A stretch of 30,505 bases of DNA, taken from positions 1 to 30,505 of IMG/VR virus record IMGVR_UViG_3300037325_000230; one strand, given 5' to 3'. The notes under the pieces are model-generated. The model was not told where the DNA came from. It made no database searches and saw nothing but the letters and a program-made list of their open reading frames with translations. Origin of the DNA: a virus. Made by a program: the position numbers and the translations under genes. Shown here piece by piece: positions 12,436-28,688 of this stretch. Numbering within the stretch: position 1 is the first letter of the stretch; each line of letters begins with the position of its first letter.

Positions 12436-12511
12436 CCCTCTCTAACTCAATGGGCAGAGTGGTTGGCCGTTTACGGTTAACTGGTTCGTGGTTCGAATCC
12501 ACGGGGAGGGA
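12436..12511 (+). tRNA. tRNA-like gene with an oversized anticodon arm
   Basis: Acceptor CCCTCTC (12436-12442) pairs with GGGAGGG (12504-12510; one U·G). D-stem ACTC/GAGT with an 8-nt loop. T-arm CGTGG-TTCGAAT-CCACG (12487-12503) is canonical, with a 5-nt variable loop. The anticodon arm (12462-12481) is 20 nt instead of 17: stem GTTGG/TTAAC encloses CCGTTTACGG, which can pair further to leave only TTTA. The isotype therefore cannot be assigned. CCA is not encoded. It lies 40 bp upstream of the tmRNA. Confidence 0.6.
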
Positions 12512-12551
12512 CGGCAGAGGGTTACACCAAAACCATATAACTAAATATCTA

Positions 12552-12858
12552 GGGGGTGCGTAGATTCGACAGCGCTCTAGAAATCAATGAAGCAAGCAGA
12601 GAATCCTGTACCTCTTGAATCGGGAAAAAGAATAACTGCAAACTCACGTTCTGCATTCGCACTAGCTGCTTAATAGCGCTCAGTGCACCACGGGCAGCAT
12701 TAGTTCTAAATGGGCACCCCTGGACTTAAATAAATAGAACACCCACCAAGGTGGCGACCTTAAACGCAACCCGCAACACCGTGGCTGGTAGAGCCTAAGC
12801 TTGTAGAAGACTGGTTTTGAAAGTTCTGGACGCGGGGGGCAGCTCCCCGCCACCTCCA
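12552..12858 (+). ncRNA. ssrA: Transfer-messenger RNA (tmRNA)
   Basis: The 5' end GGGGGTGCGTAGATTCGACAG is the tmRNA hallmark (written here as 5' GGGGGTGCG then TAGATTCGACAG). GGGGGTG (12552-12558) pairs with CACCTCC (12851-12857; one G·U) as the acceptor stem, and A12858 is the discriminator. The tag reading frame at 12638 ends in tandem stops TAATAG. GGACGCGGG near 12828 matches the conserved 3' part. The T-arm is odd: a 6-bp GCGGGG/CCCCGC stem with loop GGCAGCT in place of the usual TTC-containing loop. CCA is not encoded (CTA follows). tmRNA rescues stalled ribosomes and tags nascent proteins for proteolysis. A phage copy would serve late translation. Confidence 0.93.
12638..12673 (+). 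other. tmRNA proteolysis-tag reading frame
   Basis: GCA resume codon at 12638-12640 gives the encoded tag ANSRSAFALAA, then TAA (12671-12673) and TAG. The ALAA end is the ClpXP/ClpAP-type degron. The preceding TAACT matches the position of the conserved pre-resume element. The FALAA ending resembles actinobacterial tags. Confidence 0.92.
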
Positions 12859-12878
12859 CTAATGTTTTCTTTTCTGTG

Positions 12879-25375: not shown

Positions 25376-25654
25376 ATGAATGACCGTCAGCTTCGAAAAC
25401 TACAAAGGGGACGCCACCTCGCGGATGTTCAACGAATGATACTTTCTAACCCGCTTTTCAAGAATTTGGGTGAAAGAGATCGCAAAAAACTTGCATCGCT
25501 GATATACAAAGCCGAGACAATCGAAATATATGGCAGGGAGCGGAGTATCGCTACCCTAAACGCCTCTTTCGATCAAATCGTAGATGCAGTAAGCCTCGTC
25601 TTAAATGAGATGGACGATTATGATGACGAGGATGAAGAAGATAAAAAGCAGTAG
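25376..25654 (+). CDS. Hypothetical helical protein with acidic tail
   Basis: 92 aa from ATG 25376, with TTAGGAG (25364-25370) 5 nt upstream. A basic helical N-terminal part (RQLRKLQRGRHLADVQRMIL), a middle RKKLASLIYKAETIEIYG, and a very acidic C-terminus (DDYDDEDEED). Mixed charge suggests nucleic-acid interaction or mimicry. Last plus-strand gene before a terminator. Confidence 0.7.
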   Translation: MNDRQLRKLQRGRHLADVQRMILSNPLFKNLGERDRKKLASLIYKAETIEIYGRERSIATLNASFDQIVDAVSLVLNEMDDYDDEDEEDKKQ

Positions 25655-25682
25655 AACAGCAAAGTAACATTTTTCTTGGTTG

Positions 25683-25716
25683 AAAAGCCCTCTAGCAGCG
25701 ATGTTGGGGGGTTTTT
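25683..25716 (+). terminator. Terminator of the accessory cluster
   Basis: AAAAGCCCTC (25683-25692) can pair with GGGGGGTTTT (25706-25715) around one G·G mismatch, followed by T residues. Moderate support. Confidence 0.5.
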
Positions 25717-25720
25717 CGTG

Positions 25721-25820
25721 TATACTATTAGTACTTACTAGCCTCTTTCACTAGTAAGTGAAACTCCTTTCGTTGAGACAAAGAAAAGCCCCCGATGATA
25801 AGTCGGGGGTTTTCCTTTTT
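25721..25820 (+). ncRNA. Candidate small RNA with own promoter and terminator
   Basis: -10 TATACT (25721-25726). A predicted start near 25733 coincides with a perfect 9-bp hairpin ACTTACTAG/CTAGTAAGT (25733-25741 and 25751-25759) with loop CCTCTTTCA. A single-stranded ACTCCTTTCG (25763-25772) follows. The transcript would end at the strong hairpin 25789-25809 plus T-run, giving about 85 nt. No reading frame. The pyrimidine-rich stretches are complementary to GAAAGGAG-type ribosome binding sites. No clear -35. Confidence 0.45.
25789..25820. terminator. Bidirectional rho-independent terminator
   Basis: CCCCCGA/TCGGGGG (25789-25795 and 25803-25809) with a 7-nt loop. T-rich on the plus side (TTTTCCTTTTT), and A-rich upstream (AAAGAAAAG), so it also works for the minus-strand endolysin transcript. 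Confidence 0.85.
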
Positions 25821-25830
25821 CTAAGGAGTG

Positions 25831-26913
25831 TTACTTGGGTGGGAAGTTTATTACTTGACCTATCTGAATAAGGTTTGCATTTGCTATGTTGTTGTGCACG
25901 ACTAGCTCAGCGACATTGTATCCGGCCCTAGAAGCGATTGCGCCTAAAGTATCTCCAGATGCTACTACATAAGGTGCACGAGCTCCAGGTGCAATCCTAA
26001 CTGCTTCTGGAGTTTCTACCTTTACTGGCTCTGGTGCAACTACCTTTACTGGCTCTGGTACAACTGGTGCAACGGGTGCAACTGGCTCTGGTGCTTTCAA
26101 TGCCTCTGGTATCACGGCCTGAACTGGTTTTAACTTTAGCTTGAAGGCCTTAAAGAACTTAGCGGCTTCAGGGGATGTGGACGATGAAGTCTTCTCCACT
26201 GGGAGTGGCTTCACCTTAACCTTTGGTACCGGAATGGTTGTCAGCTTCTTGGAGTAAACCTCAGCTCCGTCGACCTCAACGGAAAGCGTGTGAGTACTGG
26301 TGAGAGTTACTCCCTTGTTTAGAACTTCTCCCGCTTTCTTCACGGTCTTTGTGTAGACGCTTTTACCATCTTTACGAAGTCTAACTTCGTAGCCTTTTGG
26401 AACTCCTTCGATGGTAACAACCACATTTCCATTCTTATGGGTGTAAGTGACGTCGACTAGCTTTTCAAGATTACCGGCAACTTCCTCTTCTTCAATCTTT
26501 TTTGCTAAGTCGAATACATTACCCCAGAAAACTCCTCTAACCGAGTCCGACAATGTCGCGTGCAAATGGGGTCCAGAACTTGCTGAGCCCGAATTCCCGA
26601 TTAGTCCTACGGTGTCGCCGCATTTGACTCTAGCTGCCACTTTTAGTGACGGCTTCACGTGAAGGTGGCAATAGCCAATGTAGAAGACCTTACCCGCAGA
26701 ATCTTGTGCAGACTGGACGATAACCCAGCCCAAGATCCTTGAGAACTGAACGAGCATAATCTTGCCCTCTGTAATGGCCGGAATAGGCGTCTTGATCTTA
26801 ACGCCCCAGTCAGTGCCACGATGTGGATTTTTGGGCGCGCCTCTAAAGTTTCGTACTTTTCCGAAGTAGCCGGTCTTGCTTTTGTCGGGGAAGGGTTTCA
26901 TCCACTTAGACAT
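25831..26913 (-). CDS. Endolysin: M23 metallopeptidase with C-terminal LysM
   Basis: 360 aa. The N-terminal lysostaphin-type M23 domain has zinc ligands H31 and D35 (HRGTDW) and the H116/H118 pair (SGPHLHA), plus CHLH (82-85). It would cut peptidoglycan cross-bridge peptides. A beta-rich middle (about 150-230), a Pro/Val/Lys linker with repeated APEPVK units (about 265-310), and a C-terminal LysM (about 312-358, YVVASGDTLGAIASRAGYN) for glycan binding follow. No signal peptide, so release needs a holin. RBS AGGAG lies 6 nt before ATG 26913. Confidence 0.93.
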   Translation of the reverse strand: MSKWMKPFPDKSKTGYFGKVRNFRGAPKNPHRGTDWGVKIKTPIPAITEGKIMLVQFSRILGWVIVQSAQDSAGKVFYIGYCHLHVKPSLKVAARVKCGDTVGLIGNSGSASSGPHLHATLSDSVRGVFWGNVFDLAKKIEEEEVAGNLEKLVDVTYTHKNGNVVVTIEGVPKGYEVRLRKDGKSVYTKTVKKAGEVLNKGVTLTSTHTLSVEVDGAEVYSKKLTTIPVPKVKVKPLPVEKTSSSTSPEAAKFFKAFKLKLKPVQAVIPEALKAPEPVAPVAPVVPEPVKVVAPEPVKVETPEAVRIAPGARAPYVVASGDTLGAIASRAGYNVAELVVHNNIANANLIQIGQVINFPPK

Positions 26914-27212: not shown

Positions 27213-28688
27213 GTGCTACTGTTGTGGAAATGTCCTCGGCTTGGTGGACAACCACAGAACTCTAAAGGGATCAAAATTACACGCACTCACAAGAATAAAA
27301 ACGTTTTATCTACACTCATACTAGTCACTGCAATTGCTCTTGCAAGCATAGTAGCTACCCCTTGGTCAAGTAGAGCGGACTCCCCAGGCAATATTAATCT
27401 AGGCGGCGCTGGCAGCTTTGCAGTGCTTGCTAAAACTTACGTAGTAACGGGGGCAGGCAGCACTGTCCATGGAGACATAGGTTCTGGAGATGCTACGACT
27501 ACTGGTGCTGGTAGCACTCACAGGGGGAGCATCTACGCTGGAGCCGCGATAACTACTGGTGCTAGTAATAACATAGACGGCAATCTATATGCAATGGCCG
27601 CCATTACTTTAGGAGCTGGAAACGAAATCGCTGGGACTGTAAGAGACAGTCAAGGCGCAATCAAAGACTCATACTCTCAAGCAATGACGGCTATGGGCCG
27701 AGTAATCTCTGAGGCCATGGGAGTTCCTGCCGAAACGATAGCCACAGCTTTGGCTGGTCGAACACTAGTTGCTGGTGCCTACACTGCTACAAGCGGTGGG
27801 TTCTTGACCCTAGCTGGTAATCTTACGTTAGACGCTGACGGCAACTCGAACGCAGTATTCATAATTAAAAGCCCGACCTATATATCTACAGCTGCTGGCA
27901 GTTCTGTGACGCTAATCAATGGAGCTAAGGCTAGCAACGTTTTTTGGATTACTGGTGGGTACATGTCCATGGGCGCTGATGCCAGAATATCGGGAAACAT
28001 CCTAGCCAATGGGTACGTAACCGTCGGAGCAGGTGCAAGTGTTCGGGGTCGTGTGTTCTCTAAGAATAGCTACGTGCTCTTTGGACTCAGCGGTCCAGGT
28101 TCTTCTTTTGGTCTAGTAGGTATTGGAACTGGGCCGACTCCAACGCCTACTCCTACTCCAACGCCGACTCCAACGCCTACTCCTACTCCAACGCCTACTC
28201 CGACTCCAACGCCGACTCCAACGCCGACTCCAACGCCTACTCCTACTCCAACGCCTACTCCTACTCCTACAAGTAGCCCGACTCCTAGCCCTACAAGTAC
28301 TCCAACGCCGACTCCAACGCCTACTCCATACCCACCGCAGACTCCGGCACCTAGTCCAAAACCAAGCAAGACTCCAACGTCGACTATTACTACCGACCCT
28401 GTAGCTGTGGAACCTCCAACTGCAGAACCTCTTCCGGAGACTACTGAGGTAGCTACACCAGAGGTCGTAGTCGTGGTCGTGGCTCCCATCGTAGTTGTGA
28501 TACCGCTAGACCCATTCTGCCTAGCAGAAGACGAAGAGCCTATGGGCATATTTGAAAGTATGGTTGCAATACCATTAGCGTTTACTCAGTCAGTTGGCAA
28601 GTTTATTGTGGGAGCATTTGCAGTTCTGGTGGATACCATTCGAGGTATCTTATATTCAGTTGCTTCGGCAGCAGGTGTGTACCGATAG
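27213..28688 (+). CDS. Secreted ice-binding-like (DUF3494) protein with Pro-Thr stalk
   Basis: Up to 491 aa. An N-terminal Sec signal (hydrophobic [19 protein letters not shown]) precedes a DUF3494 domain. The domain shows [35 protein letters not shown] and later [51 protein letters not shown], all typical of the ice-binding beta-solenoid. A Pro-Thr repeat stalk (about residues 310-390) and a hydrophobic C-terminus follow, so it may be surface-anchored. No ATG precedes the signal: GTG 27213, TTG 27222 or a non-standard ATT 27276 (AAAGGGA 5 nt upstream) are the options. Family members bind ice or act as adhesins. Rare in phages. Confidence 0.85.
28135..28270 (+). repeat. Tandem hexamer-like (ACTCCT/ACGCC) repeats encoding Pro-Thr
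   Basis: Repeats of CC(A/G/T)AC(T/G) codon pairs (CCNACN) encode the (PT)n stalk. They form a low-complexity tract prone to slippage and to length variation. Confidence 0.85.

What the first reader, a model, noticed from the sequence alone, without database searches (positions are those of the whole stretch)
25721..25820. Candidate sRNA with anti-Shine-Dalgarno stretches
A convergent intergenic region of only about 175 bp holds a -10 box, a perfect 9-bp hairpin that starts where transcription should begin, a free CTCCTTTC, and a strong terminator. CTCCTTTC is the exact complement of GAAAGGAG and nearly complementary to the phoH RBS (AAAGGAG). It could regulate translation of RBS-bearing (non-leaderless) genes and spare leaderless ones, which would link to the promoter finding above.
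Basis: partly seen in the sequence, partly recalled or inferred. Interest (0 to 1): 0.65.

Follow-up and report, generated by a model that had tools for sequence, protein, structure and literature searches.

The report
Phage small RNA with anti-Shine-Dalgarno seed
Between two genes of an uncultured bacterial virus sits a small non-coding RNA gene, conserved in many related viruses, whose exposed stretch copies the tail with which ribosomes recognise messenger RNAs, so it probably blocks the start of translation of some messages; no experiment has yet shown the RNA or its targets.

Summary
Window 25721-25813 carries a -10 box, a 5' hairpin, an unpaired CTCCTTTC and a strong terminator. Homologues of the upstream gene o25376 in other IMG/VR phages are followed by the same layout in 19 distinct members. 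The sequence between is unalignable, yet TCCTTTC recurs in 15 of 20 segments (500 shuffles: at most 6). A plus-strand -10 box occurs in 18 of 19 (shuffles at most 8), on the minus strand in 0 of 19. A covariance model finds one copy per phage record, held-out copies elsewhere, three copies moved next to a small membrane-protein gene, and none in 198 bacterial genomes. CUCCUUUC is a perfect piece of the 3' tail of 16S rRNA in many Actinobacteria. Many members also carry CAU 3-11 nt upstream, making them complementary to SD plus AUG. Best reading: a conserved phage sRNA that pairs with translation-initiation regions. The proposed phoH target is unsupported (phoH in 6 of 28 records), as is 'spares leaderless phage genes' (these phages are not SD-poorer than four sampled Actinobacteria). 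Target class unresolved: phage late or lysis genes, or host mRNAs.

The parts
25376..25654 (+). o25376, 92-aa protein of unknown function (predicted two-helix); conserved gene just upstream of the sRNA
   Evidence: 43 viral loci found with alignment A1, none in genome contigs; no Pfam or PHROG family; AlphaFold model is two helices
25682..25717 (+). 16-bp hairpin followed by TTTTT: probable terminator of the upstream operon, insulating the sRNA gene
   Evidence: fold; not seen in the relatives whose -10 box lies right after the stop codon
25721..25726 (+). -10 box TATACT of the sRNA promoter
   Evidence: -10 hexamer in 18 of 19 o25376-linked members, shuffle mean 3.0 and max 8; 0 of 19 on the minus strand
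25732..25760 (+). 5' hairpin of the sRNA (9 bp + U-G, loop CCUCUUUCA)
   Evidence: hairpins of unrelated sequence at the same place in many members, z below -3 in 7 of 19
25764..25771 (+). conserved single-stranded motif CUCCUUUC, piece of the 16S rRNA 3' tail (anti-SD)
   Evidence: TCCTTTC in 15 of 20 segments, 500 shuffle sets max 6; alignment A2; 16S tail
25785..25813 (+). intrinsic terminator of the sRNA, followed by CCTTTTTC; weaker tail in the minus direction
   Evidence: 15 consensus pairs, 8 with compensatory changes
25831..26913 (-). convergent endolysin gene (Peptidase_M23 + LysM), RBS TTTAGGAG
   Evidence: Pfam; a lysin-like gene lies near the sRNA in many relatives

Best explanation
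Window 25728-25822 (+) is a small non-coding RNA gene of about 90-95 nt belonging to a phage-specific family not yet in Rfam. SHOWN by comparison: an own promoter, 5' hairpin, conserved unpaired (C/U)UCCUUUC and intrinsic terminator, one strong copy in nearly every sRNA-bearing record, usually near the endolysin gene. INFERRED: the exposed motif, identical to part of the 3' anti-Shine-Dalgarno tail of the 16S rRNA of the probable (actinobacterial) hosts, base-pairs with SD sequences of mRNAs; in many members the CAU upstream also pairs with the start codon. This blocks 30S binding and represses translation. INFERRED with less confidence: because the phages' strong SDs sit on late structural genes and on endolysins, and the gene stays near lysis genes, the RNA mainly tunes or delays translation of SD-led late/lysis mRNAs, with SD-led host mRNAs as possible further targets.
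For: Motif: TCCTTTC in 15 of 20 non-redundant segments, shuffles max 6; CTCCTTTC in 10, shuffles max 4. Promoter strand: + 18/19, - 0/19. Covariance model R1: E below 2e-7 once in each of the 15 sRNA-bearing records searched; held-out copies L039, L062 (two in tandem), L044, L046, L019, L056, L017, L024, L042, L034; copies moved to another locus in G034, G029, G041. In L019, L023 and L039 a second TCCTTTC copy sits in the terminator loop, as expected for an RNA-level seed. Host tail: GGCTGGATCACCTCCTTTCTAAGGAG in many Actinobacteria; antiSD CCUCCUUU(C) and SD (G)AAAGGAGG for actinobacterial classes in PMC10783764. CAU 3-11 nt upstream in 10/19 plus 8/10 members against 3/19 plus 2/10 at 12-20 nt. 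Pattern scan of IMG/VR: 82 distinct hits from an incomplete scan against 30 for a same-composition control from a complete scan. No CM match in 198 genomes of an actinobacterial class. Lysin group: 12 of 27 with AGGAG or better against 12% over the core gene groups.
Against: No RNA data. No recognisable -35 box in the window. The motif is degenerate in L137, L138 and L086, and absent in L133. Close relatives of the window phage (G026-G028) lack the RNA in the parts held, so it is dispensable. No phage gene shows a cognate-specific match: mean longest complement 4.95 cognate against 4.90 non-cognate; lysin sites 5.7 against 5.9. The minus strand has an SD-ATG look in many members, which an alternative reading could claim. 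The host is inferred, not identified.
Confidence: 0.58

Rival explanations
1. Host shut-off / leaderless switch: an abundant RNA copy of the 16S tail binds SDs broadly and shuts SD-led host translation while leaderless mRNAs go on.
For: The motif matches the actinobacterial 16S tail. About half of the called phage genes have no SD and some have a -10 box just before the start codon. GAAAGGAG precedes only 6 of about 1700 called phage genes, one of which is the complement of an sRNA itself.
Against: With one crude measure the phages have SD-like 5-mers at 27% of starts, not fewer than four sampled Actinobacteria (2-25%); late phage genes carry strong SDs; abundance in the cell unknown; host not identified.
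Confidence: 0.2
2. A dedicated base-pairing sRNA against one or a few specific host mRNAs; the CAU-N-CUCCUUUC element is the complement of that mRNA's start region.
For: Complementarity to SD plus AUG; the flanks of the motif are shared within subfamilies, e.g. CCTTTCTACTAAGTGAA in L165 and L400.
Against: Flanks differ completely between subfamilies; the host genome is unknown, so this could not be tested.
Confidence: 0.22
3. The minus strand is the functional one: GAAAGGAG-N-ATG is the ribosome-binding site of a tiny minus-strand ORF, and the plus-strand motif is only its shadow.
For: ATG at 3-11 nt after GAAAGGAG in 10/19 and 8/10 members; comparable hits elsewhere in IMG/VR are true SDs of minus-strand genes.
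Against: Minus-strand -10 box in 0/19; ORFs mostly 5-18 aa and not conserved between close relatives; no start codon in the window, L144, L156, L158, L160; in L034 both flanking genes are on the plus strand.
Confidence: 0.1
4. The motif binds a protein (ribosome-assembly or RNA-processing factor, or a phage protein) as a decoy of the 16S 3' end rather than pairing with mRNAs.
For: Identity with the 16S tail is equally explained.
Against: The conserved part is UCCUUUC, not the GAUCACC part that Era recognises (own knowledge); the CAU position is unexplained.
Confidence: 0.07
5. Only a bidirectional terminator with chance sequence.
For: The terminator is real, and in several relatives only the terminator is present (L127, L128, L131).
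Against: Motif and promoter conservation far above shuffles; held-out CM hits, including copies with an unrelated terminator stem.
Confidence: 0.03

Closest known systems
C/CU-rich-seed sRNAs of Firmicutes (Listeria LhrC, PMC4132741; Staphylococcus RsaE / Bacillus RoxS, PMC9217828, PMC5419742)
   Same: Small trans-type RNA with single-stranded pyrimidine (UCCC-type) stretches in loops or linkers that pair with SD regions, and an intrinsic terminator (details partly own knowledge).
   Different: Encoded by phages of probable actinobacterial hosts; seed is UCCUUUC as in the 16S tail, not UCCC; no homology seen; no target known here.
Phage antisense RNAs that block RBSs (c4 of P1/P7, sar; review PMC12197685)
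   Same: Phage RNA with a complementary segment around a ribosome-binding site.
   Different: Those are specific to one phage mRNA; here the conserved part is generic anti-SD.
PAK_P4as15, antisense RNA of the endolysin gene in Pseudomonas phage PAK_P4 (cited in PMC12197685)
   Same: Phage sRNA linked to the endolysin gene, proposed to delay lysis.
   Different: Here the RNA ends before the lysin stop codon and does not overlap the coding region.
Abundant toxic ncRNA of cluster A mycobacteriophages L5/D29 (PMC5712189)
   Same: Non-coding RNA of actinobacteriophages.
   Different: The D29 region holds no UCCUUU or CUCCUU motif and is about 500 nt.
MazF cleavage of the 16S anti-SD (PMC12274833)
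   Same: Attacks SD-led initiation.
   Different: A protein toxin acting on the ribosome, not an RNA acting on mRNA.

Membership tests
Bacterial/phage intergenic sRNA gene | own promoter on the right strand | tested here: met
   -10 box 18/19 on +, 0/19 on -; not tested by TSS mapping
Bacterial/phage intergenic sRNA gene | intrinsic terminator | tested here: met
Bacterial/phage intergenic sRNA gene | conservation in sequence or structure, no conserved ORF | tested here: met
Bacterial/phage intergenic sRNA gene | a detectable transcript | not testable with these tools
   no RNA-seq available
C-rich-seed anti-SD sRNAs (LhrC/RsaE type) | single-stranded pyrimidine seed complementary to SD | tested here: met
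   motif 50-96% unpaired in all but L086; complement of GAAAGGAG
C-rich-seed anti-SD sRNAs (LhrC/RsaE type) | demonstrated pairing with target mRNAs | not testable with these tools
   target predictions not discriminating
C-rich-seed anti-SD sRNAs (LhrC/RsaE type) | UCCC core | tested here: not met
   conserved core is UCCUUUC
Any Rfam family | match at the gathering score | tested here: not met
   only the tmRNA of the window matched
Mycobacteriophage D29/L5 Pleft ncRNA | shared motif | tested here: not met

The most novel reading that the evidence does not exclude
The RNA is a phage-made copy of the 16S rRNA anti-SD tail, extended to cover the AUG, that acts on the whole class of SD-led mRNAs and so works as a translation-class switch during infection. 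Independent phage groups have evolved analogous RNAs, e.g. the L167/L177/L236 group with CUCCUUUCG in the loop of a hairpin whose stem keeps pairing through base changes.
Probability: 0.22. Interest if true: 0.88.

Novelty: new variant of a known kind. Interest (0 to 1): 0.64.

Why it matters
Few phage sRNAs are known outside enterobacteria, and I found no described family of phage RNAs built on the ribosome's own anti-SD sequence. If the RNA represses SD-led initiation, it gives a simple handle on how phages set lysis time or switch translation between mRNA classes, in hosts where leaderless mRNAs are common. The family is compact and conserved, with a 7-8-nt testable core and natural gain/loss variants.

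Tried and rejected
phoH as the conserved target: phoH in 6 of 28 records. Cognate-target search by duplex energy and by longest complement over about 1700 phage gene starts: no group clearly better with its own sRNA; G001 has a 13-nt match at MSAQTNF..., but its orthologue in G002 has nearly the same site with a different sRNA, so it proves nothing. Lysin site as specific target: no. Host SD comparison: not in favour of host shut-off, but based on crude gene calls and 27-80 kb per genome. Relation to the D29 toxic ncRNA: rejected. Arthrobacter phage Racecar stretch (41 kb): no CM match. DNA similarity of the sRNA region in isolated phages: only a terminator match. One search was a meaningless probe peptide and carries no weight. 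Structure of o25376: plain helices, not pursued.

Full report
WHAT IS THERE. The window is a 30.5-kb IMG/VR virus record with actinophage-like genes; its PhoH is nearest, apart from one unannotated faecal phage fragment, to Arthrobacter phages Racecar, Mimi, Atuin and Talia1610. Between o25376 (+) and the M23-LysM endolysin (-) lie 176 bp. In order on the plus strand: a 16-bp hairpin with T tail (25682-25717), TATACT (25721-25726), a 9-bp + U-G hairpin (25732-25760), CTCCTTTC (25764-25771) and a terminator (25785-25813). The RNA from the -10 box to the terminator folds much better than shuffles (z = -5.65). There is no convincing -35 box.

IS IT CONSERVED? Direct searches with the lysin, with o25376 or with the hairpin DNA found nothing. 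ThyX and the DUF1599 protein brought in relatives, and o25376 homologues were found in them. An alignment of these (A1) found 43 viral loci and none in bacterial genomes. Downstream of o25376 about half of the distinct loci repeat the layout -10 box, hairpin, pyrimidine motif, terminator. The proteins are only 36-53% identical to the window's and the sRNA segments are otherwise unalignable, yet TCCTTTC occurs in 15 of 20 segments; 500 sets of dinucleotide shuffles never exceed 6 for any 7-mer. A consensus -10 hexamer is present in 18 of 19 on the plus strand (shuffle mean 3.0, max 8) and in 0 of 19 on the minus strand. The 5' hairpins differ in sequence but are significantly stable (z below -3) in 7 of 19 members: window, L156, L146, L152, L154, L158, L160. 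Some members (L151, L164, L166, L137, L086) have weak or no 5' hairpin, so the hairpin is common rather than universal.

A COVARIANCE MODEL. Alignment A2 gave model R1, whose only consensus pairs are in the terminator, 8 of 15 with compensatory changes. Over 1.1 Mb it gives one match above 52 bits in each of the 15 sRNA-bearing records, the next being 33 bits. Held-out loci match at 34-49 bits: L039, L062, L044, L046, L019, L023, L056, L017, L024, L042, L049, L034. L062 has two tandem copies, both with TCCTTTC. L032, L053, L069 and L037 are matches to the terminator alone and do not count. In three records where o25376 has no sRNA beside it, a copy is found elsewhere, with a different terminator and next to a divergent gene for a small membrane protein: G034, G041 and G029. 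The nearest relatives of the window phage, G026-G028, gave no match, so the gene comes and goes. No match in 198 genomes of an actinobacterial class, although the same model rings in phage records.

WHAT THE MOTIF IS. CUCCUUUC(U) is a perfect piece of the 3' end of 16S rRNA; one search shows ...GGATCACCTCCTTTCTAAGGAG in many Actinobacteria (and some other phyla), and PMC10783764 lists antiSD CCUCCUUU(C) for actinobacterial classes. In most members the motif lies in an unpaired linker; in L019, L023 and L039 a second TCCTTTC copy sits in the terminator loop. In 10 of 19 plus 8 of 10 members CAU lies 3-11 nt upstream of the motif, against 3 of 19 plus 2 of 10 at 12-20 nt: the RNA is complementary to SD, spacer and AUG at natural spacing. 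The same fact supports the rival that the minus strand is a real start site. Against that rival: no minus-strand promoter, tiny unconserved ORFs, no start codon in the window and several relatives, and contexts such as L034 with plus-strand genes on both sides. I give it 0.1.

A WIDER PATTERN. 33 of the 82 have an ATG at SD distance on the minus strand, so many of these are ordinary SDs of minus-strand genes. Others look like further sRNAs, notably a group with -10 TATACT followed by ACCGGYGG-TTTTACTTCTCCTTTCGTTGTG-CCRTCGGT, where the motif is in the loop of a hairpin whose stem changes on both sides. This is a lead, not a result.

TARGETS. In the window the phoH RBS is nevertheless the only sense AAAGGAG. 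Over about 1700 called phage genes roughly 13% have AGGAG or better and 6 have GAAAGGAG. Strong SDs concentrate in structural-looking gene groups and in the lysin group, 12 of 27. Cognate and non-cognate sRNAs match phage start sites equally well. With the same crude measure four Actinobacteria samples show 2-25% SD-like starts and the phages 27%, so the idea that the phage spares itself by avoiding SDs is not supported; the true host is unknown, so this comparison is weak.

HOW IT PROBABLY WORKS. Shown by comparison: promoter, motif, terminator, single copy, phage-specific, mostly near lysis genes. Inferred: base-pairing with SD (and AUG) to block initiation. Guess: main targets are SD-led late/lysis mRNAs of the phage, possibly host mRNAs too. 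Works like: LhrC/RsaE-type CU-rich-seed sRNAs. Member of that family: no, since the core differs and no homology was seen.

LITERATURE. Searches of the open full-text library found no description of a phage RNA with an anti-SD tail; subscription papers and preprints are not covered. The toxic ncRNA of D29 (PMC5712189) lacks the motif.

Noticed in passing
window 12552-12861 (+): Complete tmRNA gene (RF00023, 89 bits) in the phage; blastn shows similar DNA in many of the relatives.
   Followed up: partly
window 12436-12512 (+): tRNA-like gene with a four-base anticodon call (ttta) just before the tmRNA; possibly an unusual or decayed tRNA.
   Followed up: no
window 27213-28688 (+): Ice-binding-like protein with a long Thr-Pro repeat and a hydrophobic C-terminus, divergent from the small gene before the lysin.
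   Followed up: no
window 25764-25829: TTTCTAAGGAG after the terminator equals the 16S/spacer junction CCTCCTTTCTAAGGAG of many Actinobacteria; AAGGAG can pair with the sRNA motif in read-through RNA. Window-specific, maybe chance.
   Followed up: partly
L167, L177, L199, L219, L235, L236: Another phage RNA-like element with CUCCUUUCG in the loop of a covarying hairpin after a TATACT-like box.
   Followed up: partly
L168-L170, L178, L189, L200, L239: Phage elements holding both AGAAAGGAG (or ACAAAGGAG) and CTCCTTTCT in one short region, able to pair with each other.
   Followed up: no
L183, L237, L258: TATAAT followed by a CCCGG hairpin and TTCTCCTTTCCTTTCGG before a terminator in another phage group.
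   Followed up: no
L400, L401, L402: In three phages the sRNA lies divergent to a small membrane-protein gene (holin-like by look, no Pfam hit).
   Followed up: partly
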